Positions 1 to 43,157 of a stretch of DNA of 64,000 bases are shown here, one piece after another. The position numbers were made by a program, and so were the translations under genes. This DNA is from Candidatus Helarchaeota archaeon (GTDB taxonomy: Archaea; Asgardarchaeota; Lokiarchaeia; Helarchaeales; HEL-GB-A), in contig JABXJU010000001.1 of NCBI GenBank assembly GCA_013375405.1, positions 1 through 64,000 on the forward strand, in the 5' to 3' direction. Every line of letters starts with the position of its first letter. Position 1 is the stretch's first letter. Below the pieces are notes generated by a model that was not told the origin of the DNA, did not search any database, and saw only the letters and a program-made list of their open reading frames with translations.

Positions 1-939
1 ATAAAGGTTGCAATTCATCCATGCACTTACGCCACAACATATTGCATTTTCACGATTTTCTTCCATTTCATTGAGTTGAACACCGGGAATTGCCTTTAAG
101 ACATTCCGAGGAGCTTCATAAACTCCCATATGACGGCCTAGCCGGCATGGATCTTGATATGTTATTTTAATAGGAAATTCATATGGAAAAGCTAGGCGGC
201 CTTCCTTTAATTGGTCTTCTAAAAATTCAGCGAAACTAATAACCTTAAACGAATAATTTCTTACGTAACGTGGATAATCTAATCGAAAAGTCCGATAACA
301 CTCTGGACATATCGTAATAACACGCTCTACACCACTATTTTCGATCGCTTCAATAGTATATTCTCCTAGTTTCTTAAAATTTTCATAATCCCCTCCCCAG
401 AAGAGATCATGCCCACAACACTTCTGGTTTTCAAGAATTTGAGGTTTTATTTCTAAAGAATTTAGAATTTTAACTGTGCTAATTGCGATATTTGTATAAT
501 TATGTTCAAAATGAGTATCAAAAAGTGATAGACATCCAGTAAAAAGTAAATTCTCAGATGTTTCTGAAAATTTTACTTCCTTCGTAAAAAAGGCATTTAG
601 ATTTGTATCCGATTGGTTATTAGCCATTAACCTAGCTAGGGTGGAAAAAATGCCAAAGTGAGCCTCTGCAAGAAGAGCTCCTTGCTGTCTAAGCTTGTGC
701 CGTTCCTCTCTAACAAATTCTGATAATTTTACATCCATAGGGCAACGGCTCGAGCAAAGATCACATGTGGAACATTGGGCTAAACGGTCAGCATCTGTCA
801 TCTTCCCTAAAAGAGCATTATGAATTAAAATTCGTGGTGAATAGAAACTGGTCTCCCCTAGAGGACAAATTCCAGTGCATTTTCCACATTGATAGCAATA
901 TTTAATCAAATCTTCCGGTGAAAGTTTCAGAGAATACAT
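1..939 (-). CDS. HdrD/GlcF-like iron-sulfur protein with CCG domain (3' end cut by window edge)
   Basis: The reading frame is open from an ATG at 939 to the left edge, giving 313 residues without a stop; the C-terminus lies outside. The N-terminus carries two ferredoxin-type motifs (CYQCGKCTGICP and CSTCDLCSSRCP). They are followed by CCG-type motifs, CCGHDLFWGG near residue 173 and CCGVSAWMNC near residue 303, plus single cysteines in TGC and TICPEC. This is the HdrC-HdrB fusion layout of HdrD and GlcF-type proteins, which pass electrons to disulfides or quinone-like acceptors. It sits directly downstream of the selenoprotein HdrA and has an AT-rich TATA-like stretch before it, so it may be co-transcribed or have its own promoter. 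The physiological disulfide substrate cannot be read from the sequence. Confidence 0.85.
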   Translation of the reverse strand, partial: MYSLKLSPEDLIKYCYQCGKCTGICPLGETSFYSPRILIHNALLGKMTDADRLAQCSTCDLCSSRCPMDVKLSEFVREERHKLRQQGALLAEAHFGIFSTLARLMANNQSDTNLNAFFTKEVKFSETSENLLFTGCLSLFDTHFEHNYTNIAISTVKILNSLEIKPQILENQKCCGHDLFWGGDYENFKKLGEYTIEAIENSGVERVITICPECYRTFRLDYPRYVRNYSFKVISFAEFLEDQLKEGRLAFPYEFPIKITYQDPCRLGRHMGVYEAPRNVLKAIPGVQLNEMEENRENAICCGVSAWMNCNLY

Positions 940-1006: not shown

Positions 1007-1074
1007 CCCCTTGAGTTGCCTATTCTCTTCCTTTCCTACATCCTCGTTTTTTTGAAGTAGGAGCATTGAAGGGG
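1007..1074 (-). promoter_or_regulatory. Candidate SECIS element in the 3' UTR of selenoprotein HdrA
   Basis: Starting two bases after the HdrA stop codon, the minus strand can form a perfect 6-bp stem, CCCCTT (1074-1069) with AAGGGG (1012-1007). Inside it lies a second perfect 6-bp stem, TCCTAC (1062-1057) with GTAGGA (1039-1034). After one T-T mismatch two more pairs follow (1055-1054 with 1042-1041), leaving an A-rich apical loop (1053-1043). A 3'-UTR hairpin with an A-rich apical loop is what Lokiarchaeota-type, eukaryote-like SECIS elements show. I do not see a clean UGA/GA kink-turn core, so the exact fold is uncertain. Confidence 0.45.
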
Positions 1075-1075
1075 T

Positions 1076-3025
1076 TTAAGTTTCAGATAAGAGGGCATCC
1101 AAATACTTTTCAAACATAGTATCTCGATAAGCTCGTAAAGTTGCTGCTCCTGAGGGGCAGATTGCTGCACACGATCCACAACCCCTACAGAGTATTGTAT
1201 TAATTTTAGCGATGTTATCTTTCATTGTAACTGCATTATATGGACAAATATTAACGCAAAGACCACATCCGCTGCATCGATCTTCATCGATGATCCCATC
1301 AAGTTGGACGAGCTCATGAAATTCTTTTATCATTGGAATCGATGCCGAGGATGCCGCAGCTTTTCCAGATGAAACCGAATCTGCAATCGATTTTGGTCCT
1401 TGGGCGCCTCCACATAGATAGATTCCCGGTATTTTCGTATCAATTGGATTTAGCCGCGCATGATATTCTTTTAGAAAACCATCCGCACTTTTTTCTAGTC
1501 GAAGTAATTTAGCGATTTCTTCAGTCGATACTGAAGGTTCCATTGCCGTTGAAAGTACCACTAAATCTGATTCAAGTTGGAGAATCTCTTGACTTAAAGT
1601 ATCTTCCACGCGAATTATCAGATCTTTCGTCGTAGAATCCTCTTTTATGTCCGCAATATTCCCTCGGAGAAATTTAATCCCATTTCTACGAGCTTGAAGA
1701 AAATATTCTTCATATCCTTTACCTGCTGCCCGAATATCCATGAAACATATAGTGATATCTGCATTCTCTATGTGTTGTTTAAGTAAGTTTGAGTTTTTAA
1801 TTGCCACCATGCAACAAACTCCTGCACTACAGTGAAGATTCTCCCTTAAACTTCGAGAGCCCACGCATTGAACCATAAAGATTTTCTGTGGGATTTTTTT
1901 ATCCGATGGACGAATAACTTCTCCCAATGTGGGACCATTCGGCGCAAGAAGCCGTTCCAGTTCAATTTGGGTAATGATATTATCGAATTTTCCATAGCCA
2001 AATTGGTTGATTGGATTATATGTTTGAAAGCCGGTAGCAATTATAATAGTTCCCGCGCAAAGGGTAACAATCTCAGGTTCTTGTTCGAATTCAATGGCTT
2101 CTGGTTCACATTTTTTGACACACAATCGACATTCAATGCATTTTTCTCGATCAATGAGAAATTTATTAGGTACTGCTTGGTCAAAAGGACGATAGATTGC
2201 TTTTCTATATCCTAACCCCATGTCAAAATCGTTCGGTGCATAAATGGGACAAATATCTATGCAGGCTCCACACCCATTACACTTTTCTTCGTTCACATAA
2301 CGGGGATTCTTCCTGATTTTTACATTAAATTCTCCAATATGTCCTTCAACTTCTATGAGATCCGAGTAGGTAATGAGATTAATTAGTGGATGGGTTGCGA
2401 CTTCTAACATTATTGGTCCTAGAATTCATATAGCACAGTCGTCCGTAGGGAATGTTCGATCCATTTTAGCCATATAACCCCCAATAGTGGGTAATTTTTC
2501 CAGTAAATAGACAGTAAACCCTTCATTTGCAAGGTTTAAAGCTGCGCTGAGGCCTGCTACACCGCCTCCAATTATAAGAGCTGACGGTACAACCTTTACT
2601 CTTTGAGTAATTATCTCCTCTAACTCTCTAGCGCGTTCCACAGCTGCTCTAAGCAGATCTTTTGCTTTTTGTAACGCCTCATCCTTTGTCTTATGAACGA
2701 AGGACCCCTGTTCCCGTATATTAACAAATTCGAGATATCCTCGGTTTAATCCTGCCTCTTGAAGTACTCGAATGAAAACTGGTTCATGTGTTTTTGGAGT
2801 ACATGCCACAATTATTACTCGATTTAGGTCAAGCTCGGCAACTTTTTCTTTGATTAAATCTCCACCCACGGTTGTACATAATGAAAGAAGATCCTCAACC
2901 ACTGAAACGTTCAGGGTCTCTGCATACCTCTTTAATTCTTCCATATCGATAATACTTGCAATATTTAGCCCTCAGTGACATAGAAATATTCCGATGCTTA
3001 CGTTATTGTCGTCCGTTCTTATCAC
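1076..3025 (-). CDS. hdrA: HdrA, heterodisulfide reductase subunit A-like selenoprotein with two in-frame UGA codons
   Basis: One continuous frame of 650 codons is broken only by TGA at 2972-2974 and 2426-2428. Around the first TGA the protein reads GIFLCHUGLNIA, matching GVYVCECGINIA of the HdrA encoded at 6596-8563. Around the second it reads FPTDDCAIUILGPIM, matching FPTLDCSACILTPKM. Both TGAs therefore replace motif cysteines, and homology runs straight through them, giving 649 aa against 655 in the paralog. Domains are an N-terminal HdrA domain, the FAD site GGGVAGLSAALN, ferredoxin motifs in the insertion (CNGCGACIDICP, CIECRLCVKKCEPEA) and a C-terminal pair (CSGCGLCVNICP, CRGCGSCAAICP). 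HdrA is the flavin-based bifurcating subunit, and methanococcal HdrA is a known selenoprotein. The start is GTG 3025 or 3028 by elimination: a TAA lies four codons upstream and no other start precedes the first Sec. The GGAGG there overlaps the start, so the exact N-terminus is unsure. Confidence 0.9.
2426..2428 (-). other. In-frame UGA, predicted selenocysteine codon (residue about 200) in a CxxU motif
   Basis: The codon falls in FPTDDCAI-U-ILGPIM. The Cys paralog in the same window has the second cysteine of its CSAC motif at this position. Five sense codons separate the TGA from the next ATG in the same frame, and conserved HdrA residues are encoded on both sides. A decayed stop would not be expected to coincide with a motif cysteine. 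Confidence 0.88.
2972..2974 (-). other. In-frame UGA, predicted selenocysteine codon (residue about 18) in a CxU motif
   Basis: The codon falls in FLCH-U-GLNIA. The Cys paralog reads YVCECGINIA, so the TGA replaces the second cysteine of the N-terminal CxCG motif. Annotating from the next ATG (2944) would delete this conserved N-terminus. Confidence 0.87.
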
Positions 3026-3306: not shown

Positions 3307-4137
3307 TTACAAATCGGCTTTAATCTCTTTTAAGGCATCCCAACAAAAAACGGGGCCGTCTTTACAAATGTACAGGTTTCCTACATTGCATCGACCGCAT
3401 TTTCCTATTCCACACTTCATTCTTGCTTCAAGTGTTGTATATATTTGTTCTGGCGCAAATCCTAGTTTTTCAAGATTTTGAATAACGAACTTTATCATAA
3501 TAGGGGGGCCACACGTGATTGCTATAGTATTTTCAGGCGAAGGTTTAACTTCCATGAGGTTGGTTGGTACAAATCCTACAAAGCGAGTCCAACCTTCTTC
3601 CTCAACATCAATTGAAAGGTGCACACCGATATCACCAGTCTTTTCTAATTCAAATAACTCGTCTTTGTAAACTAAATCCCCTGATGTTCGGGCACCATAG
3701 ATAATTGTTAATTTTTCATATTTTTCGTGATTTGCGAGCATATATTGTATTATTGGGCGAAGTGGTGCCTGACCAATACCACCGCCTATGAAGACAATAT
3801 TCTTTCCTTCCCAGTCTTTAACGGGAAATGGATTTCCATAAGGTCCTCTGGCTCCAATTATATCTCCTATTTCTAAGCCATGAAGTGCAGAAGTATTTAG
3901 CCCTACCTTCATTACACTGACTTGAAGGTATTCTTCTTTATAAGATGAAATTGCGAACATGCTTTCTCCTACACCAAGCACGCTAATCATAATAGTCTGC
4001 CCGGGCATATATTTGAACGATTCTTGGATGGTTTTATCGTTAAACGTAAAAGTAAAGGTTTTAATTGGCCTTGCTCCATCGACTTCTAATTTGATGTCTT
4101 GAATAGTCGCTAGATGTGGCGTGTATGGATTACTCAT
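3307..4137 (-). CDS. FlxA/AsrB-like FAD-NAD(P)-binding oxidoreductase subunit with 2Fe-2S motif
   Basis: This 276-residue protein has the ferredoxin-reductase layout. An FAD-binding beta-barrel (PGQTIMISVLG; RGPYGNPFPV) is followed by a nucleotide-binding half (GGGIGQAPLRPIIQY; TCGPPIMIKF). The C-terminal cluster motif CGIGKCGRCNVG with a later C resembles sulfhydrogenase gamma and dihydroorotate dehydrogenase electron-transfer subunits. In the FlxABCD-Hdr family this subunit accepts electrons from NAD(P)H. The gene starts at ATG 4137, overlapping the previous stop by 8 nt, so the two are translationally coupled. Which pyridine nucleotide it uses cannot be told by eye. Confidence 0.85.
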   Translation of the reverse strand: MSNPYTPHLATIQDIKLEVDGARPIKTFTFTFNDKTIQESFKYMPGQTIMISVLGVGESMFAISSYKEEYLQVSVMKVGLNTSALHGLEIGDIIGARGPYGNPFPVKDWEGKNIVFIGGGIGQAPLRPIIQYMLANHEKYEKLTIIYGARTSGDLVYKDELFELEKTGDIGVHLSIDVEEEGWTRFVGFVPTNLMEVKPSPENTIAITCGPPIMIKFVIQNLEKLGFAPEQIYTTLEARMKCGIGKCGRCNVGNLYICKDGPVFCWDALKEIKADL

Positions 4138-5155
4138 TAACCGGAACCTCCTTTAATTTATGTAGGGCATCAAGAATATCGCAATTCTCAGGACAAAGTT
4201 CAATGCAACGACCGCATCCGAAACAACCAAACATATTCACATTTTTGGGAAGATATAGGAATTTATGGAGAATTTTGTTCCGCATACGCTCTGTTCGAGC
4301 GGACCTAGGATTATGTCCTGATGCATGTAATGTGTATTCCGGACTTTGACACGTATCCCAGACACGAATTCGACATCCTTCTAATCCCTCGACTTCATCT
4401 TGAATATCAAAACAATAACATCCTGGACAGTTATATGTGCAAATTGAACATCCTAGGCATCTCATAGATAGCTGTTCCCAAATATCATTATCAAAGAGTT
4501 TATCTAATTTCTGTACCAGCCCCTCTGTATCAACACCACGGACAAATTTTTCCAATGCGTCCTTCTGGAGTTGGATTTTCTTCTTTTCATCATCAGCAGA
4601 GGCATCTTCAAATAGTGACTGAGATTCATTTATTAAATTTTGCCCTTTTTCTGTTAAAATTTCAATGAAGTACTTATCTCCCAAATCAGTTAATGATATA
4701 TCCAAATTTTCAGTTCCTGCAGGAGACCCATCAACAGATGTGCAGAAACAATTCAGATCAGGTTCATTACAAGCTATTCCGATAAGAATAGAGTTCTGCC
4801 TTCGCTTCAAATAATAAACATCAACATAGTCCTTCTCATATATATCATCAATAACTGACAAACTTTTCGCGTCACACGGTCTTATCCCTAGTACCACAAA
4901 TTTTTCGGATGGTTCTACAGGTTTGATATCTTTTTCTTTCCCTAATTTAAAGGTGAAAAGAGTTTCCGTCTGTTTAAAGAATAAATCTTTAGGCGAAGTG
5001 ACAGTATTTATAAAATCCAATGTAATATTTTTTGGATCTGAAATTTGTTTGAACATAGGTAATTCATTTTTAACGATAGGTGCGTATAATGTGTATTTCT
5101 TCATTAAATCTTTGGCCCATTGCGTTAATTTATCTTTTTTTAGAATTTTTGACAA
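4130..5155 (-). CDS. FlxB/AsrA/HydB-like 4Fe-4S protein
   Basis: The 341-residue protein has an N-terminal region typical of sulfhydrogenase beta/AsrA proteins (VVLGIRPCDAKSL; GIACNEPDLNCFC). Two C-terminal cluster motifs follow, CLGCSICTYNCPGCYC and CFGCGRCIELCPENC. Proteins of this family carry electrons between a flavin subunit such as the adjacent FlxA-like protein and a partner oxidoreductase. The start is TTG at 5155 after GGTG, 12 nt downstream of the preceding stop. Assignment to the Flx role is inferred from gene order, since sulfhydrogenase and sulfite reductase complexes use the same family. Confidence 0.82.
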   Translation of the reverse strand: MSKILKKDKLTQWAKDLMKKYTLYAPIVKNELPMFKQISDPKNITLDFINTVTSPKDLFFKQTETLFTFKLGKEKDIKPVEPSEKFVVLGIRPCDAKSLSVIDDIYEKDYVDVYYLKRRQNSILIGIACNEPDLNCFCTSVDGSPAGTENLDISLTDLGDKYFIEILTEKGQNLINESQSLFEDASADDEKKKIQLQKDALEKFVRGVDTEGLVQKLDKLFDNDIWEQLSMRCLGCSICTYNCPGCYCFDIQDEVEGLEGCRIRVWDTCQSPEYTLHASGHNPRSARTERMRNKILHKFLYLPKNVNMFGCFGCGRCIELCPENCDILDALHKLKEVPVNE

Positions 5156-5167
5156 TTTTTCACCCCA

Positions 5168-6154
5168 CTACATAATATCCTCGTCAATTTTCTCATCTTC
5201 AGGTTTGAAAAATGACATAAGTGGTTTATCTTCCTCATCCATTCCGGGGACATATTCGAATATCCGCTTCACTTCTTTTTCCAATTTCTTGTAAAGCTTC
5301 GTTAAGGGAATTCCTTTAGGACATGCTCTCTCGCACTCACCACAAGCAATACACCTTCCAGCGAGGTGAAGAGCCCTCATTAAATGATATGCAGTATTCT
5401 CAGAGGCATTCACTGACCGACGAATCCATTGCGGTGCAAGATCTATTGCCTTACATACAGGGCAATAGCACATAGGACAAATATTTTGGCAGGCATAGCA
5501 TCGTATACATTCCGTAAATTGATCTTCCCAGAAAGCCCACCGTTCTTCTGGAGTCATATTTTCCAATTCTTCAATCGTCCGATAATCTTCTTTCTTGTCA
5601 ACTTTTACTTTTTTACCCAAAAGATGGTCATAAATAACTGGATTAGGGCACTCACAGGTCAAACACTTATTCGCAATGACCTCATCCTTGGGAATTTCTA
5701 TTGATTTATCTCCCGATTTGACTATATATTTTCCATCTTCCTCAAAAACATCATCAACTTGGGTGATTCCCTTCAATTTCTTCTTTAATTTTCTTAAATC
5801 AATTACTCCTACACAGGGAATACCAAAAATAATTATCTCATCCCGTTCAATGCCTTTCTCTTGAAGCAATTTAACAATAGATCGGCTGTCACAGCCTTTT
5901 ACAAGGATAGCTATTTTCTTTTTTTCTGCAGTTTGTCCTCGTGGCAAAGGTAATTTTTCTTCTTTCGTGAGAAAGGTTGCTAGATTAGCTACACATAAGG
6001 GATTGAATATGAACCTATCAACGCCTTCTGGCTTGAACGCAAAGCTCGGTCTGGTTCTTGCTCCATATGTTCCTTTCTCGTAACCAATTGCATATTTGAC
6101 ATCGTCTTGCGCGACTAAGTCTTTAATTAATTCTTTCATCTCATCAAGGTTCAT
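5168..6154 (-). CDS. FlxC-like 4Fe-4S electron-transfer protein
   Basis: The 328-residue protein begins with a globular domain containing VKGCDSRSIVKLL and FGIPCVGVIDL, reminiscent of the FrhB/FdhB family. It then has a Cys-rich segment NKCLTCECPNP, a first cluster motif CIRCYACQNICPMCYCPVC and a second CIACGECERACPKG. This matches the Fe-S subunits that accompany HdrA and MvhD in Flx-Hdr complexes. It overlaps the MvhD-like stop by 4 nt (ATGA), which indicates tight coupling. F420 or NAD use cannot be decided from the sequence; the NAD site in the FlxA-like partner makes NAD(P)H the more likely donor. Confidence 0.8.
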   Translation of the reverse strand: MNLDEMKELIKDLVAQDDVKYAIGYEKGTYGARTRPSFAFKPEGVDRFIFNPLCVANLATFLTKEEKLPLPRGQTAEKKKIAILVKGCDSRSIVKLLQEKGIERDEIIIFGIPCVGVIDLRKLKKKLKGITQVDDVFEEDGKYIVKSGDKSIEIPKDEVIANKCLTCECPNPVIYDHLLGKKVKVDKKEDYRTIEELENMTPEERWAFWEDQFTECIRCYACQNICPMCYCPVCKAIDLAPQWIRRSVNASENTAYHLMRALHLAGRCIACGECERACPKGIPLTKLYKKLEKEVKRIFEYVPGMDEEDKPLMSFFKPEDEKIDEDIM

Positions 6155-6594
6155 TTAGCTATCACCCGCTGAAATTTTTTCATAGGACCTAATTTTTTGA
6201 CGTCACTCACAATTGCGGTTATAACTTCTGCCCATCGTATACCTTCTGAAGCTGAAACCCAAGAGAGGCGAAACCTCCGGGGATCAATTCCAATATATTT
6301 TAAGAGTTCCCTTAGAACAGCAAATCTTCTTCGAGTGTAATAATTTCCATAAATGTAATGACAATCCCCGATATGGCAACCTGATATTAATACACCATCA
6401 GCCCCCTGTTGGAGTGCATTAATGACAAAAAGTGGGTTAATTCGGCTGGAACACATCACGCGAATAATTTTCACATTTGGCGGATATTTAATTCGGCTCG
6501 TTCCTGCCAAATCTGCTCCTGCGTACGAGCACCAATTACATAAAAACGCGACGATATTTGGTTCAAAATCTTCTGACTTATCTTTTTTAGTCAT
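6151..6594 (-). CDS. mvhD: MvhD/FlxD-like 2Fe-2S electron-transfer subunit
   Basis: The protein of about 147 residues shows the MvhD pattern of paired cysteines: FLCNWCSYAGADLAGTSR, VMCSSR and SGCHIGDCHY. MvhD bridges an oxidoreductase and HdrA through a 2Fe-2S cluster. VhuD, a relative in methanococci, can carry selenocysteine, but all cysteines here are encoded as Cys. ATG 6594 is chosen because it follows the HdrA TAA by one base; a GTG at 6606 would lie inside that gene. It sits between HdrA and the FlxC-like gene, the order expected of an Flx-Hdr operon. Confidence 0.88.
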   Translation of the reverse strand: MTKKDKSEDFEPNIVAFLCNWCSYAGADLAGTSRIKYPPNVKIIRVMCSSRINPLFVINALQQGADGVLISGCHIGDCHYIYGNYYTRRRFAVLRELLKYIGIDPRRFRLSWVSASEGIRWAEVITAIVSDVKKLGPMKKFQRVIAK

Positions 6595-6595
6595 G

Positions 6596-8563
6596 TTACA
6601 CACCACTCTGTGTAAATGTGGAAATTATTGCAAGGATCTGGTTATCCTTGAAATGTCTTTGTTCTATTGCTCCTGACAAACAAACTGCATTACACGATCC
6701 ACAACCTTTACAAAGGGCTTCATTGACAGTAGCAACAGTTACGAGGTGCCCGTATCTATTTACCGTTTTCAATTCGATGGCGTTATAAGGGCATATCTCT
6801 ACACAGAATCCACACCCTCGGCATTTAAGCTCATTTACAATGGATGTTATCGGTTCGATTAATAAATGTGATTGCGATAAAATTTCACATGTCTTCGCAG
6901 CAGACCCGCTTGCTTGTGCTACAGTATCTGGAATATCCTTCGGACCTTGAACACATCCTGCTAAAAACACCCCATCTGTAAAAGTATCAACTGGACGCAA
7001 TTTAGGATGCGCTTCCATTAAGAATCCATCGGGACTACGTGATAGGTTAAACAACCTTGCTAACTCTATGAGATCGGATTTTGGAACAAGGCCTACGCCT
7101 AACACAACCAAATCAAAAATTAATTCAAGTGGGCGGTCTAAAAGCGTATCCTCCGCACGAATCGTTAAGGTTTTGTCTGGATTCTCAAAAATTTCAGCAA
7201 CCCGCCCTCGAATGAATCGGACTCCAGATTGATTTTGTGTAGCATTATAAAATTCTTCGAATCCTTTTCCAAAAGCTCTAATATCTATGTAAAAAAGGAC
7301 GCATTCCGCTTCTGGATGCTTTTCTTTATATAACCTGGCTTGCTTTATCAAATACATACAGCAAACTCGACTACAATATGGATTAAATCCTTCTTGTAGA
7401 CTTCTACTTCCAACACAATGAATGAACGCAACACGTTCTGGGGCCTCATCTGGATTAGATATTTTTACGACATTTCCTAATGTCGGACCAAAAGAACTGA
7501 AAAGACGCTCCATCTGAAGACCATTGATGACATTTTCATATTTTCCATAGCCATAAAATTCAGCTATGGATGCATCAAATATATCAAACCCAGATGCCAT
7601 GACAATGGCACCTACCTCCACTATTTCTTCCTCTGATTTCAAATTGAGGTCGATTGCTTCCGGTTCACATGGTTTTATGCATAAACCACATTTAATACAT
7701 GTATTATCATCAATTACGTATTTATTGGGAACTGCTTGCGGAAAGGGGATATAAATTGCTCTCCGTGGACTCAGTCCAAGGTCAAATTCATTAGGAACAA
7801 TCACGGGACATATATCTGCACAGTCCCCGCACGCGTTACATTTGTCAGGAATAACATAAGTTGCGTTTTTTCGAATAGTAACCTTAAAATTGCCAATATA
7901 TCCATCAACATTTATAACCTCTGTATTAGGAAGTAAAACAATATTTGGATGCCGCCCCAGATCCGACATTTTCGGCGTCAGGATACAGGCGGAACAATCT
8001 AGAGTGGGAAAAGTTTTGTCTAATTGCGCCATACGCCCTCCAACTGTGGGCGATTTTTCAACTAAATACACTTTATACCCATTGTTGGCGATGTCGAGTG
8101 CAGCTTGTATTCCTGCGATACCACCGCCGATTACCATCGCTTGAGGTGTCACGCTGACCTTCGTCCGAATAAGAGGTTCGAGCAAGGCAGCTCGACTAAC
8201 TGCTCCTGCTATCAAGGTCATCGCCTTTCTCGTAGCATCCTCGCGACTCGTATGAACCCATGAGTTTTGTTCTCGAATATTTACCATTTCAAAACAATAA
8301 GGATTCATACCTTTTTTCTCTACAGTACCACGAAAAGTAGGCTCGTGCATCCGAGGCGAACAAGCAGCAACAATCACTCTATCTAACCCTACTTCTTCAA
8401 TGTCCTTTTGAATCATTTCCTGCCCCGGATCGCTACACACGAATTTATAATAACGTGCCACTGCCACATTAGGTAAATCATTCGCAAACTCCACGACTTT
8501 TTCCATATCTACTGTGGCTGCAATGTTTATACCACACTCACATACATAGACTCCTATCTTCAT
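6596..8563 (-). CDS. hdrA: HdrA, heterodisulfide reductase subunit A-like (cysteine form)
   Basis: This 655-residue HdrA starts IGVYVCECGINIA, has the FAD-binding GGGIAGIQAALDIANNGY and the cysteine motif DCSACILTPKM. It carries four ferredoxin motifs (CNACGDCADICP, CIKCGLCIKPCEPEA, CRGCGFCVEICP, CKGCGSCNAVC). It is the first gene of the MvhD-FlxC-FlxB-FlxA run and would be the bifurcating flavoprotein that splits electrons between ferredoxin and a disulfide. It is the all-cysteine counterpart of the selenoprotein HdrA 3 kb downstream, and alignment of the two fixes the Sec positions. Separate hdrB and hdrC genes are not in view. Confidence 0.92.
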   Translation of the reverse strand: MKIGVYVCECGINIAATVDMEKVVEFANDLPNVAVARYYKFVCSDPGQEMIQKDIEEVGLDRVIVAACSPRMHEPTFRGTVEKKGMNPYCFEMVNIREQNSWVHTSREDATRKAMTLIAGAVSRAALLEPLIRTKVSVTPQAMVIGGGIAGIQAALDIANNGYKVYLVEKSPTVGGRMAQLDKTFPTLDCSACILTPKMSDLGRHPNIVLLPNTEVINVDGYIGNFKVTIRKNATYVIPDKCNACGDCADICPVIVPNEFDLGLSPRRAIYIPFPQAVPNKYVIDDNTCIKCGLCIKPCEPEAIDLNLKSEEEIVEVGAIVMASGFDIFDASIAEFYGYGKYENVINGLQMERLFSSFGPTLGNVVKISNPDEAPERVAFIHCVGSRSLQEGFNPYCSRVCCMYLIKQARLYKEKHPEAECVLFYIDIRAFGKGFEEFYNATQNQSGVRFIRGRVAEIFENPDKTLTIRAEDTLLDRPLELIFDLVVLGVGLVPKSDLIELARLFNLSRSPDGFLMEAHPKLRPVDTFTDGVFLAGCVQGPKDIPDTVAQASGSAAKTCEILSQSHLLIEPITSIVNELKCRGCGFCVEICPYNAIELKTVNRYGHLVTVATVNEALCKGCGSCNAVCLSGAIEQRHFKDNQILAIISTFTQSGV

Positions 8564-18960: not shown

Positions 18961-20034
18961 TTAATCCATCTTTATTAGGCGTTCAGCTAGATCTTCAAAT
19001 ATTTTATCCACATTTTCCCCAGTTTTTGCTGAAGTTTCTATAAAACTTAGATCTAACTTTTCCGCCAAATCCTTTCCATCTAATCTATTTATTTGGCGTG
19101 GTAAATCTATTTTATTCCCAATTAAAAATCCAGGTTTTTCCCCGAGAGCACTTGATAGATCTAAATACCAGTGCTCTACATTATCAAAAGTTTTCGGGTT
19201 TGTTACGTCATAAAGAATTAATACAGCGTTACTCCCCTTATAAAAATTATTCCGTACTTTATTGAATAGGTCTTGTCCTGCAATATCCCAGAGATTATAT
19301 TTTACCAAAGTTGTATCCTTATAATCCATATTTTTTAAAGAGACTTGGACTCCCAACGTAGGGATATATAGTTCACGAAACGCTTTATCAACAAAACGTA
19401 ATAACAGAGTAGTTTTCCCGACCCGAGGATCCCCTATTACAACAACCTTAAAGGAATATTTATGTTTGTATTGTTTTTGTACCTGAGCTGCTATTTGATA
19501 TCTCGTAATCTCATCTTGTTGACAAGAATCTAGAAACTCTTTTAGTTGATTAAAGAGAGTCTTTAGAGAACCCGTGATATCTTCATTGTTTTTGATCGAG
19601 TCCTTCAGGCTCTCCATCGGAGTAATTAATTTCACGAGGTCTTCCATTGTTTTGTAGATCACGGATGTATACTTTTCATTAAAAAGGACTGAAATAGTTG
19701 CTAGTATTACCCCTCCACGAGCTTCAGGTTCTGTTAATTCAAATACAAATATAACAGCTGTCATGTGCAATTTAGGTAAAGATAATACCGAAAGATGTTC
19801 AGGAGGGGGCATAGCACCATCTTCACCTGCAAGAATGGAAACCGATTTAATAGAAATTTCTGTCAATGTTATATTCGCAAATTCCTCAGGATACCACGCA
19901 ATAGCTTCTGGCCCCATTTCCCCGAATTTCGAAATAACAATCCCTTTTAGGACATCTTTTTCGGATTTTTCCACATTATAGTCTTCCTTATTATCCATTT
20001 TTAGTTTAAAATATCTAACTGTGTCCAACTTCAT
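18961..20034 (-). CDS. Longin-like domain fused to a Ras/Rab-type small GTPase
   Basis: Residues about 28-135 form an alpha/beta domain (GIVISKFGEMGPEAIAWYP; ARGGVILATISVLF) of the longin-like kind seen on Asgard GTPases. A helical linker follows (about 135-190), then a complete G domain: GDPRVGKTT (201-209), T226 in PTLG, WDIAGQ (249-254), NKID (307-310) and TSAK (334-337). All catalytic motifs are intact, including the switch-II glutamine. There is no C-terminal prenylation cysteine, so membrane binding, if any, would come through the N-terminal domain. A start at Met13 is also possible. It converges on the 1319-residue gene, whose C-terminus also looks longin-like. Confidence 0.9.
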   Translation of the reverse strand: MKLDTVRYFKLKMDNKEDYNVEKSEKDVLKGIVISKFGEMGPEAIAWYPEEFANITLTEISIKSVSILAGEDGAMPPPEHLSVLSLPKLHMTAVIFVFELTEPEARGGVILATISVLFNEKYTSVIYKTMEDLVKLITPMESLKDSIKNNEDITGSLKTLFNQLKEFLDSCQQDEITRYQIAAQVQKQYKHKYSFKVVVIGDPRVGKTTLLLRFVDKAFRELYIPTLGVQVSLKNMDYKDTTLVKYNLWDIAGQDLFNKVRNNFYKGSNAVLILYDVTNPKTFDNVEHWYLDLSSALGEKPGFLIGNKIDLPRQINRLDGKDLAEKLDLSFIETSAKTGENVDKIFEDLAERLIKMD

Positions 20035-20628: not shown

Positions 20629-21540
20629 ATGAAATTTCTCAACTATAGGCAGAACGGAACAATTAACTGCGGCATACTCTTAGAGCCGAGCCACGTTCTT
20701 AGTTTAAAAAATGTTATTCAATTTTTAGGGAAAGATCTCTCATTGGTAGAGCGTGATATTGATTTTTTCAATAATTATATCTCTTTAAGACCCGAATTAG
20801 ATGAAGTTTTAAAAAAATCTTCAGATAAAATTGAAAAAATCTCCCTAACTGATGTTAAAATTTTAGCTCCCATTTTAAAACCATCGAAAATAATGTGTTT
20901 AGGGTTAAATTATCGTGATCATGCGGAGGAAACTGGTCAAAAATTGCCAAAACTCCCGATGCTCTTTGCGAAAGCGCCTACTGCAGTTATTGGAATGGAT
21001 GATGAAATCCAAATACCAAAGGTGCGCAAGAAAATTGGGAAAGAACTACGCCCAATTCAATTCCTGGATTACGAGGTAGAATTGGCAATTGTCATCGGCA
21101 AAGAATGTAAACGTGTCCTGGTTGAGGAGGCTCAGAACTACATCTTGGGCTACACGATTCTAAACGATGTATCTGCCAGAATGGAACAAATGGCTGATAA
21201 GCAATTTTTTCGCTCTAAAAGCTTTGATACTTTCGCTCCCTTAGGTCCATGGATTGTGACATCCGACGAAATCCAAGATCCAATGAATTTAAACGTTGAA
21301 TGTAAGGTGAATGGCGAGATAATGCAAAATTCTAACACAAGAAATATGAATTTTAATGTTTATGAGATTGTTTCCTTCATCTCTGAGTCGATCACATTAC
21401 TCCCTGGGGATATAATCGGAACTGGAACCCCTCCTGGAGTGGGTGCAGCAAGGAAACCGCCAAAATCCTTAAAAGCCGGCGATCTCATCGATATGACTAT
21501 CGAAAAAGTTGGTACTTTACGAAATCGCGTTCAGGGATAA
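20629..21540 (+). CDS. Fumarylacetoacetate hydrolase (FAH) family protein
   Basis: The 303-residue protein has an N-terminal cap and a C-terminal FAH core: GLNYRDHAEETGQ, the metal-binding acidic residues in LDYEVELAIVIGKE, and GTGTPPGVGAARKPPKSL. The family hydrolyses or decarboxylates acylpyruvates, fumarylpyruvate, oxaloacetate or 2-hydroxyhepta-2,4-diene-1,7-dioate-type substrates. The catalytic frame looks complete, but the substrate cannot be told. Transcription is probably leaderless from the TATA box at 20599. Confidence 0.9.
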   Translation: MKFLNYRQNGTINCGILLEPSHVLSLKNVIQFLGKDLSLVERDIDFFNNYISLRPELDEVLKKSSDKIEKISLTDVKILAPILKPSKIMCLGLNYRDHAEETGQKLPKLPMLFAKAPTAVIGMDDEIQIPKVRKKIGKELRPIQFLDYEVELAIVIGKECKRVLVEEAQNYILGYTILNDVSARMEQMADKQFFRSKSFDTFAPLGPWIVTSDEIQDPMNLNVECKVNGEIMQNSNTRNMNFNVYEIVSFISESITLLPGDIIGTGTPPGVGAARKPPKSLKAGDLIDMTIEKVGTLRNRVQG

Positions 21541-33169: not shown

Positions 33170-34357
33170 TCACAATGATTTTAAAAGGAGTTCTGTGAGA
33201 TCTAGGACATTATAAGAGCGACCTAGCGCATCGACAGCTTCTTTCAGATTTCGTTTGCAGAATGGACAGGTCGAAACGATTGTTTCTAACTTTTCTATGT
33301 CGTCAGCCTCTTTTATCCGTTCTTTACTTGTCCAGAGAGCAAAATCTGCAAATGCTTTCTTCACCCCTCCGCCAGCTCCGCAACACCATGCCTGTTTGCC
33401 ATTCCGTTGAAATTCAATGAAATTAATTTCCGGAATCATGCCAATAACTCGTCTAGGATCTTTGCGTACAGCAGCATGGCGTGAAAGATGACATGGATCA
33501 TGGTATGTGATTGTCACCTTTTGCGGTTTCAATTTGATTCCTTGATTTCTGAACTCTTTTTTAAAGAATTGAGATGAATGAACTACTTTGAAATCTAATT
33601 TTTCCTTCTGAAGCAGTTTCGGATAGTCGATGGTGAGTGTTTTATAACAACCTGCACAGCTGGTTATAACGGTTTTAGCCCCAGAATCCAGAATAGTTTT
33701 GTAATTGTGCTCGATTATTTCCATTGCATCCTTTCGCATTCCGCTACGAAGCATTGGCGACCCACAACACCATTCATCGACCCCAAGTATTGAAAACTTA
33801 ACATTCAACTTATTTAAAATATCAACCGTCGCCTGAGCGATCTCTTTCTCCCGGAACGAAGCAGTACACCCTGCAAAATATATTATCTCCTCCTGTTTTT
33901 CTGAAACTTTTCGTCCTTCAAGCCAATCAAACCGTTTTTCATTCGCTTCTTTATATGGATTATGATTTTTCAGCGTGTCCTTTTTAATCTCAAGATGTCC
34001 CGGCATGGGTCCAACACCCGAATCTACTAGCGCCGTCCGTAAGTCCTCAAAAGTTTCAACTTGATTTTGTACAGCTCCTAGTGCGGTATGATCCTTACAT
34101 TGGACAAAGCACCCTCCACATACTTGACAAGCGTATACAATCTGAAGGAGGTCTTCGGCATTTGTTGGTACATCCCCTTCAATTAATCCACGAATGAGCT
34201 CTACTCGCCCAACAGCAAAATAACTTTCAAAGCCATAATAACTCCCACTCGGGCAAATGGGAACCCAATCTTTCAATTCATGATAATTCGCAATAGAACA
34301 TAACCGACAATGCGAACAATAATACACAATTTTATCATACTTCTCTAAGATTTCCAT
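33170..34357 (-). CDS. GlcF/HdrD-like Fe-S protein with two CCG domains
   Basis: The 395-residue protein has a first cysteine cluster (CSHCRLC...CPSG), a second one (CQVCGGCFVQC), and two CCG-type motifs (DEWCCGSPMLRSG, QAWCCGAGGG). Further cysteines occur in FAGC, SCAGCYKTL, DPCHLSRH and STCPFCKRN. Such proteins oxidise a flavoprotein partner and reduce a quinone or disulfide. The FAD-linked GlcD-like dehydrogenase at 34957-36405 lies upstream in the same direction, so together they should form a D-lactate/glycolate-type 2-hydroxyacid dehydrogenase. The first cluster has irregular spacing (C-x2-C-x2-C, then CP further on). Confidence 0.87.
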   Translation of the reverse strand: MEILEKYDKIVYYCSHCRLCSIANYHELKDWVPICPSGSYYGFESYFAVGRVELIRGLIEGDVPTNAEDLLQIVYACQVCGGCFVQCKDHTALGAVQNQVETFEDLRTALVDSGVGPMPGHLEIKKDTLKNHNPYKEANEKRFDWLEGRKVSEKQEEIIYFAGCTASFREKEIAQATVDILNKLNVKFSILGVDEWCCGSPMLRSGMRKDAMEIIEHNYKTILDSGAKTVITSCAGCYKTLTIDYPKLLQKEKLDFKVVHSSQFFKKEFRNQGIKLKPQKVTITYHDPCHLSRHAAVRKDPRRVIGMIPEINFIEFQRNGKQAWCCGAGGGVKKAFADFALWTSKERIKEADDIEKLETIVSTCPFCKRNLKEAVDALGRSYNVLDLTELLLKSL

Positions 34358-42941: not shown

Positions 42942-42985
42942 ATAAAAATTTCTCCTTTTTTATTCATTTTTTTTAATCTTCTTTT

Positions 42986-43016
42986 ATTTCGTCTTATTGG
43001 CAGACGAAATTTTTAA
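42986..43016 (+). terminator. Hairpin plus T-run terminator after the AOR operon
   Basis: ATTTCGTC (42986-42993) and GACGAAAT (43003-43010) form a perfect 8-bp stem with a 9-nt loop, followed by TTTTT. Earlier T-runs at 42954-42974 add to the signal. It resembles an intrinsic terminator. Confidence 0.55.
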
Positions 43017-43157
43017 TTATCATTCTTTCCGAGAATTGTGACAATACTTAAAAGGAATCATTTCCTAACTAGCAGAAATAGATCAGAAACCTTTAGATGT
43101 TTTCTTATTATATAATATTTTCTAAGTTGGAAGGTTTTATCAAAAGAAGGTTCAGGT

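What the first reader, a model, noticed from the sequence alone, without database searches (positions are those of the whole stretch)
1076..3025. HdrA with two predicted selenocysteines, split into two ORFs by ordinary gene calling
Two in-frame TGAs fall exactly on motif cysteines of HdrA (CxC and CxxC), and the second HdrA 3 kb away has Cys at both places, providing an internal control. Homology is continuous through both codons and beyond the first ATG. UGA is a normal stop elsewhere in the window (for example at 33170 and 51762), so this is recoding, not a changed code. Sec in HdrA is known from methanococci and multi-Sec proteins have been described in Lokiarchaeota; the CxU plus CxxU combination may be uncommon.
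Basis: partly seen in the sequence, partly recalled or inferred. Interest (0 to 1): 0.95.

Follow-up and report, generated by a model that had tools for sequence, protein, structure and literature searches.

The report
Selenium-studded iron-sulfur cluster in HdrA
A gene that appears to come from an Asgard archaeon, for the electron-splitting enzyme subunit HdrA, carries two in-frame UGA codons found at the same two places in more than a hundred relatives; they are predicted to be read as selenocysteine and likely put selenium on two corners of one iron-sulfur cluster that two HdrA copies would share.

Summary
Observation confirmed. The minus-strand frame 3025-1076 encodes a full-length HdrA interrupted only by TGA at residues 18 and 200. 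The evidence points to Sec recoding, not error: the nearest relative, Helarchaeota Hel_GB_A (75% identical), has both TGAs, and its genome has tRNA-Sec, SepSecS, EFSec-like, PSTK-like genes and a TGA-containing SelD. A SECIS-like hairpin just after the stop scores best of 127,932 window positions against 51 Asgard hdrA elements, though its core reads AUGC, not AUGA, and a flanked covariance model missed it.

The survey is the main result. In 234 HdrA genes read, 391 of 392 in-frame TGAs fall on four of 26 conserved Cys columns: 18, 50, 75, 200; one gene has all four. Column 200 is Cys197 of 5ODC, described as donated by one HdrA to the other's N-terminal cluster. I infer that 18, 50 and 75 are that cluster's other ligands. 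Four bacterial HdrAs have the same 18+200 pair, inside a single-Sec bacterial clade. Sec in HdrA is known; my paper searches did not show the four-column pattern.

The parts
1076..3025 (-). hdrA-U: HdrA homolog read through two TGA codons (649 aa); GTG start at 3023-3025 uncertain, TAA stop at 1076-1078
2972..2974 (-). TGA, residue 18 (CHUG), N-terminal Fe-S domain; aligns to Cys13 of 5odc_A
2426..2428 (-). TGA, residue 200 (DCAIU), thioredoxin-reductase-like domain; aligns to Cys197 of 5odc_A
1032..1066 (-). SECIS-like core: AUGC / 9-position stem with one U.U mismatch / loop AAAAAAACGAG / AA, starting 10 nt past the stop codon
   Evidence: weak
1007..1074 (-). whole 3'-UTR hairpin: lower stem CCCCUU/AAGGGG enclosing the core; similar hairpin after hdrA-U in Hel_GB_A
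1..939 (-). downstream gene, HdrC/HdrB-like Fe-S protein, cut by the window edge; a 77% identical gene follows hdrA-U in Hel_GB_A
6596..8563 (-). second HdrA, no TGA (internal control)
6151..6606 (-). MvhD/VhuD-like electron-transfer subunit, no in-frame TGA before its stop
5168..6154 (-). Fe-S protein of the same gene run (weak family matches)
4130..5155 (-). sulfhydrogenase beta / AsrA-like Fe-S subunit (below curated cut-offs)
3307..4137 (-). sulfhydrogenase gamma / AsrB-like FAD-NAD(P) subunit (below curated cut-offs)

Best explanation
The gene encodes an HdrA whose two UGA codons are predicted to be read as selenocysteine, likely placing selenium on two of the four ligands of a [4Fe-4S] cluster predicted to sit between the two HdrA copies of a dimer. 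Inferred mechanism: EFSec, tRNA-Sec and the 3'-UTR SECIS-like hairpin recode both UGAs; Sec18 of one subunit and Sec200 of the other then bind the N-terminal cluster, an electron-transfer station of the bifurcating enzyme. The softer selenolates would tune that cluster's potential, or make the bond between subunits easier to break and remake as the moving arm of the enzyme turns. Shown here: the frame, the TGA columns, the machinery in the nearest relative, the recurrence across genomes and two domains. Inferred: Sec insertion itself, which Cys residues are ligands, and the redox effect. Estimates: Sec at both sites 0.93; both on one cluster 0.75.
For: Both TGAs in Hel_GB_A and Lokiarchaeota 9R3_44. 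234 genes read: 392 in-frame TGAs, 391 on columns 18/50/75/200, 1 on column 594, none on 16 or 197. TGA at 18, 50 or 75 occurs only with TGA at 200, no exception. Arithmetic: 26 Cys columns conserved in 98% or more of 229 rows; by position 16 lie in the two ferredoxin domains and 4 in the thioredoxin-reductase part, leaving six; a cubane needs four, and exactly four become TGA. Column 200 = Cys197 of 5odc_A, the trans-subunit ligand of the N-terminal cluster in PMC9012536 (passages). Bacterial 18+200 genes L248-L251 form a clade (support 99) inside single-TGA bacterial genes (100). The SECIS-like core ranks 1st of 127,932 positions, 19.7 bits v. 8.5 for the next. tRNA-Sec (UCA), SepSecS and an EFSec-like gene lie on one contig of the nearest relative.
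Against: No protein or selenium datum was available. The window's core has AUGC where the consensus is AUGA. The covariance model with flanks did not list the element in the default search of the window and gave 12.2 bits, E 0.32, rank 2, unfiltered in 9 kb; it did not list Hel_GB_A's element either, and the flank-free model puts that one only third in L001 at 4.4 bits, its loop being one base longer. Cys16 is as conserved as 18, 50 and 75 (100% of 229 rows; 18 of 18 further N-domains), so conservation does not show which three N-terminal Cys bind the cluster; I saw no coordinates. One TGA sits at a ferredoxin Cys (594), and P0069 and P0073 have W at such Cys. UGA18 lies 1,906 nt from the element, beyond the 70-1,500 nt quoted for archaea. 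Papers differ on the cluster's place in the electron path: towards ferredoxin (PMC9012536) or, for clusters of the HdrA N terminus, on the input side (PMC12350162).
Confidence: 0.76

Rival explanations
1. The two Sec residues are redox-active selenols, each pairing with the neighbouring Cys (CxU and CxxU selenenylsulfides) as in thioredoxin-like enzymes, not cluster ligands.
For: The motifs CxU and CxxU resemble redox motifs, and both Cys partners are conserved in 100% of 229 rows. PMC9312934 lists HdrA under CxxU (passage).
Against: TGA also appears at 50 and 75, which have no neighbouring Cys in the window's protein; column 200 is a described cluster ligand; 16 and 197 are never TGA in the genes read.
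Confidence: 0.14
2. Only UGA200, the long-known site, is decoded efficiently; UGA18 mostly terminates and acts as a selenium-dependent switch that shuts off this HdrA when selenium is scarce.
For: UGA18 is 17 codons from the putative start and 1.9 kb from the SECIS-like element; a Cys-only HdrA 3.6 kb away could take over, as Cys isoforms do in M. maripaludis (passages).
Against: Column 18 is Cys or TGA in 100% of 229 rows, so the residue is needed; a switch would not explain the same column in bacteria or TGA at 50 and 75.
Confidence: 0.08
3. The TGAs are sequencing errors, or the gene is a decaying pseudogene.
For: None found; metagenome assemblies can carry errors.
Against: Both columns are TGA in Hel_GB_A and 140 other genes; pN/pS 0.20-0.42 in the five segments tested; no other interruption.
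Confidence: 0.01
4. The organism reads UGA as an amino acid throughout (changed code), as gene callers seem to have assumed where database proteins show W at these sites.
For: 22 of 22 full-length database proteins checked carry W at columns 18 and 200, which looks like table 4.
Against: 9 of 36 long window ORFs end in TGA; tRNA-Sec with UCA anticodon in the nearest relative; TGA is confined to Cys columns in the genes read.
Confidence: 0.01

Closest known systems
Selenoprotein HdrA of methanogens and Asgard archaea (Sec in CxxU; PMC9312934, PMC11227280, PMC9723677; passages, and sections 6 and 13 of PMC11227280)
   Same: TGA at the Cys of CxxC in the thioredoxin-reductase-like domain; Asgard genes with eukaryote-like SECIS elements
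   Different: The window gene has a second TGA in the N-terminal domain (CxU), and relatives also use 50 and 75. What I read of these papers does not describe more than one Sec per HdrA
PDB 9sfi_A, HdrA with a non-standard residue (X) in its sequence
   Same: X, presumably Sec, at the column of residue 200
   Different: Cys at columns 18, 50 and 75
HdrA of the HdrABC-MvhAGD complex, 5odc_A
   Same: Same domains; column 200 = Cys197, the trans-subunit cluster ligand
   Different: Cys at all these columns
Archaeal proteins with two or more Sec: VhuD/FrhD (PMC13188914, passage), one or two Sec per gene from a single SECIS (PMC9499178, passage), and the multi-Sec Lokiarchaeota families of Mariotti et al. 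2016 (recalled; paper not held)
   Same: More than one Sec per archaeal protein, one SECIS
   Different: VhuD is another protein; I recall that three of five Lokiarchaeota families had multiple Sec and cannot check whether HdrA was one
Selenoprotein HdrA of Deltaproteobacteria (PMC1794560, passages)
   Same: TGA at column 200; 30 of 50 bacterial genes read here have it alone, 4 have 18+200 (20 of the 50 were chosen for TGA)
   Different: Different recoding signal: a hairpin in the coding sequence after UGA (recalled; weak support)

Membership tests
Selenoprotein | In-frame TGA aligned to Cys of Cys-homologs, homology on both sides | tested here: met
Selenoprotein | Sec machinery in the genome | tested here: met
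   Met in the nearest relative G001: tRNA-Sec 67.7 bits (28, 101), SepSecS (61), EFSec by the SelB model (103), PSTK 181 bits but under the curated cut-off of 290.5 (65), SelD with TGA (99). Not testable in the window's own genome (6, 7)
Selenoprotein | Selenium in the protein | not testable with these tools
   no proteomic data
Eukaryote-like Asgard SECIS | AUGA (or GUGA) 5' core | tested here: not met
   window has AUGC; Hel_GB_A has AUGA. Called SECIS-like for this reason
Eukaryote-like Asgard SECIS | upper stem, A-rich apical loop, 3' [G/A]A | tested here: met
   8 of 9 stem positions pair, loop AAAAAAACGAG, AA; top score in the window
HdrA (soluble heterodisulfide reductase subunit A) | full-length HdrA architecture with the conserved Cys set | tested here: met
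HdrA (soluble heterodisulfide reductase subunit A) | NCBIfam curated cut-offs of CoB-CoM HdrA models | tested here: not met
   781 of 1100 bits (NF040770), 623 of 1400 (NF041778): an HdrA homolog, not a proven CoB-CoM enzyme
Sec-ligated [4Fe-4S] cluster | Sec18 and Sec200' bound to the same cluster | not testable with these tools
   column 200 = Cys197 ligand by alignment and paper text; 18/50/75 inferred

The most novel reading that the evidence does not exclude
Evolution has been replacing the cysteine ligands of one inter-subunit [4Fe-4S] cluster in HdrA by selenocysteine, one corner at a time, in archaea and separately in bacteria: 200 first, then 18, then 50 or 75, up to a cluster held by four selenocysteines (L098), a natural cubane ligated mainly or wholly by selenium.
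Probability: 0.6. Interest if true: 0.88.

Novelty: new variant of a known kind. Interest (0 to 1): 0.72.

Why it matters
Why Sec is used in place of Cys is a long-standing question, mostly asked of enzymes where Sec is the catalytic atom. Here Sec seems to be recruited repeatedly, and almost only, to the ligands of one cluster in the wiring of an electron-bifurcating enzyme, a cluster that bridges two subunits. The natural series of 0, 1, 2, 3 and 4 Sec gives a ladder for measuring what each selenium does to a cluster's potential and lability, and the bacterial copies give an independent replicate made by a different recoding system. It also warns that automatic calls split such HdrA genes or write W at the Sec sites.

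Tried and rejected
Sequencing error, pseudogene and changed code were tested and rejected. Rfam at gathering thresholds and ARAGORN found nothing in the window. A covariance model with 14-nt flanks (R1) found elements in 9 of 28 loci not used for training at E below 0.001 and in 0 of the 8 Cys-gene loci among them at E up to 1, but found neither the window's element nor Hel_GB_A's; the flank-free pair model found the window's. A candidate element overlapping the next gene's start was considered by eye and dropped because its pairing is not kept in Hel_GB_A. I tried to use Cys conservation to name the ligands; Cys16 is conserved too, so this failed. eEFSec domain PF21131 gave nothing over its cut-off; the SelB model did. 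A structure prediction was not run: it returns no coordinates and could not show ligands.

Limits of the counts. The 142 class genes are the window's gene, 12 loci and 129 rows: every row listed there with a TGA was read, 15 listed rows without a stop were not fetched, and the list itself is cut by score. The 50 bacterial genes are 30 best matches plus 20 rows picked because they held TGA, so their proportions are biased. The 41 other Asgard genes (39 full ones in the tree) are 30 loci from 30 genomes I chose out of the phylum listing plus 11 rows chosen for TGA. The strict SECIS pattern (100 of 130 TGA genes) has no shuffle control; the looser one has (76 of 133 v. 17.5 expected; 0 of 8 Cys genes v. 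0.8), and it misses the window's element. Pair counts are inflated because I selected paired elements. The tree is FastTree, midpoint-rooted; gain counts (18: 4-5, 50: 8, 75: 11, 200: 2-3) depend on both.

Full report
1. What is there. On the minus strand, 3025 to 1076 reads as one HdrA of 649 residues with TGA at codons 18 and 200 and a TAA stop (codon positions). Ordinary calling splits it into 172 and 444 aa. Pfam finds the FAD-binding part and ferredoxin domains; 5odc_A aligns from residue 10 to 645 straight through both TGAs. It scores below NCBIfam's cut-offs for CoB-CoM HdrA, so it is an HdrA homolog of unproven substrate. A second HdrA in the window (6596-8563) has no TGA. Between the two lie MvhD-like and sulfhydrogenase-like electron-transfer genes.

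2. Not an error, not a changed code. Hel_GB_A (Candidatus Helarchaeota, named record) has a 75% identical HdrA with TGA at the same two columns and is the window gene's sister in the tree; Lokiarchaeota 9R3_44 has both at 53% identity. The window's taxon itself is inferred from this; a Ras-family GTPase in the window fits an Asgard genome. Selection against amino-acid change holds before, between and after the TGAs. TGA ends 9 of 36 long window ORFs. In the protein database, entries of 443-444 aa cover 68% of the query, the size of the piece after site 200 (listing; only the window's own piece was seen as sequence), and 22 of 22 full-length entries opened have W at 18 and 200, 5 of them also at 50: callers seem to stop at the TGA or to use code 4.

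3. Sec machinery. The window's genome is not held. In the nearest relative, G001, contig C6 carries tRNA-Sec with anticodon UCA (67.7 bits), SepSecS (494 bits) and an EFSec-like gene over the SelB model's cut-off (284.7 bits). A PSTK match is present at 181 bits, under a curated cut-off of 290.5, and SelD itself contains a TGA. Across the class SepSecS passes its cut-off in 77 of 83 genomes. In 9R3_44 the best tRNA-Sec match is below the cut-off, 37.9 of 47 bits.

4. The SECIS-like element. Asgard hdrA genes show the element described in PMC11227280 (passages): AUGA, a 9-bp stem, an A-rich loop, GA or AA; in many it lies 420-560 nt after hdrA, in others close to the stop. A relaxed pattern is found after 76 of 133 TGA genes against 17.5 expected from shuffles, and after 0 of 8 Cys genes (0.8 expected). 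In the window a hairpin at 1066-1032, starting 10 nt past the stop, has the same geometry: 8 of 9 stem positions pair, the loop is AAAAAAACGAG, the 3' core is AA. A pair model trained on 51 elements, without the window or Hel_GB_A, ranks it first of 127,932 positions at 19.7 bits, next 8.5. Hel_GB_A keeps the hairpin with a U-A to C-G change and has AUGA. Against it: the window's core is AUGC; the relaxed pattern and the flanked covariance model in its default search miss it, unfiltered it gets 12.2 bits, E 0.32 in 9 kb; and Hel_GB_A's own element, with a loop one base longer, is missed by the flanked model and ranks third in L001 in the flank-free one.

5. The pattern. I read 142 HdrA genes from the class of Hel_GB_A (83 genomes searched; tally): 133 have TGA at column 200, 119 at 18, 35 at 75, 23 at 50, and one gene also has a TGA at 594. 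Seventy-five genes have two TGAs, 50 have three and one (L098) has four, at 18, 50, 75 and 200. Other Asgard genomes give 19 further 18+200 genes among 41 read. In all 234 genes, 391 of 392 TGAs are on those four columns, none on 16 or 197, and no TGA at 18, 50 or 75 occurs without TGA at 200. Of 26 Cys columns conserved in at least 98% of 229 rows, 21 show no TGA in these genes and one (594) shows a single TGA.

6. What the four columns share. Column 200 is Cys197 of 5odc_A. PMC9012536 (passages; it labels the complex M. wolfeii, while PMC12350162 gives M. thermolithotrophicus for 5ODH) states that Cys197 of one HdrA is a ligand of the N-terminal cluster of the other copy; columns 18, 50 and 75 are in that N-terminal domain (Cys13, 46 and 71). 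Sixteen conserved Cys belong to the two ferredoxin domains and four (387, 399, 404, 405) to the thioredoxin-reductase part, by position; six remain, a cubane needs four, and four become TGA. I infer that these four are the ligands. Conservation cannot confirm it, since Cys16 is invariant too. [quoted passage not shown] Sec on both sides of that bond is the mechanism I favour. The two papers differ on the electron path: PMC9012536 puts the cluster on the way to ferredoxin, PMC12350162 puts clusters of the HdrA N terminus on the input side, so I do not commit to a branch.

7. Bacteria repeat it. Of 50 bacterial HdrA genes read (20 chosen for TGA), 30 have TGA at 200 alone and 4 at 18+200. Those four form a clade (support 99) inside a clade of nine that otherwise holds single-TGA bacterial genes (100); a wider clade of 14 also holds two Asgard Cys genes (FastTree). 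So the second Sec likely arose there separately from the Asgard ones. Downstream of UGA200 these four fold with z -0.8 to -2.7, three of them with a 7-bp hairpin; after UGA18 only L248 is strong (z -3.3; the others -0.1 to -0.3). The window has no such fold at either site (z +1.0 and +0.35). On the tree, parsimony gives about 8 gains at 50 and 11 at 75.

8. Known and new. Sec in HdrA is known, listed with the motif CxxU (PMC9312934, passage), and Asgard HdrA is counted among 1,439 selenoproteins (PMC11227280, sections 6 and 13 read); that survey paired TGA with the Sec of known queries. 'Two Sec' and 'multiple Sec' do not occur in its main text. PMC9499178 says archaeal selenoprotein genes encode one or two Sec with a single SECIS (passage). 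I recall from the abstract of Mariotti et al. 2016 that three Lokiarchaeota families have multiple Sec; the paper is not held, so multi-Sec HdrA may be in print. My searches for it (listings) and for Sec as an Fe-S ligand (listings), with passages opened in 15 of the papers found, gave no account of the four-column pattern. Hence 'new variant of a known kind'.

Noticed in passing
L098 (G020:C94), columns 18/50/75/200: One HdrA gene with four in-frame TGAs, at all four columns; its genome has SepSecS and an EFSec-like match, but no PSTK match and no SelD match over the cut-off was found.
   Followed up: partly
L105 column 594; P0069 and P0073: A TGA at a ferredoxin-domain Cys of HdrA, and W at such Cys in two database proteins (DNA not seen): rare possible Sec outside the four columns.
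   Followed up: no
L061, directly downstream of hdrA: The next gene, MvhD/FrhD-like, read by eye from the printed DNA, has two in-frame TGAs; the first recurs in L066, L072 and L109. The window's own MvhD has none before its stop.
   Followed up: no
Database proteins P0022-P0089 (654-660 aa): 22 of 22 such HdrA entries opened carry W at the Sec columns 18 and 200, as if called with genetic code 4.
   Followed up: yes
window 18961-20034 (minus): Ras-family GTPase domain in the C-terminal half of a 357-aa protein, in keeping with an Asgard genome.
   Followed up: no
G015:C197:20705-22003: SepSecS gene with one in-frame TGA inside, in a genome with many TGA-bearing HdrA genes: error, or recoding of a Sec-synthesis gene.
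   Followed up: no
window 20787-20848 (+) and 42978-43037 (-): Two weak matches to the flanked SECIS model (E 0.037 and 0.084), the first inside a FAA-hydrolase gene; probably chance.
   Followed up: partly
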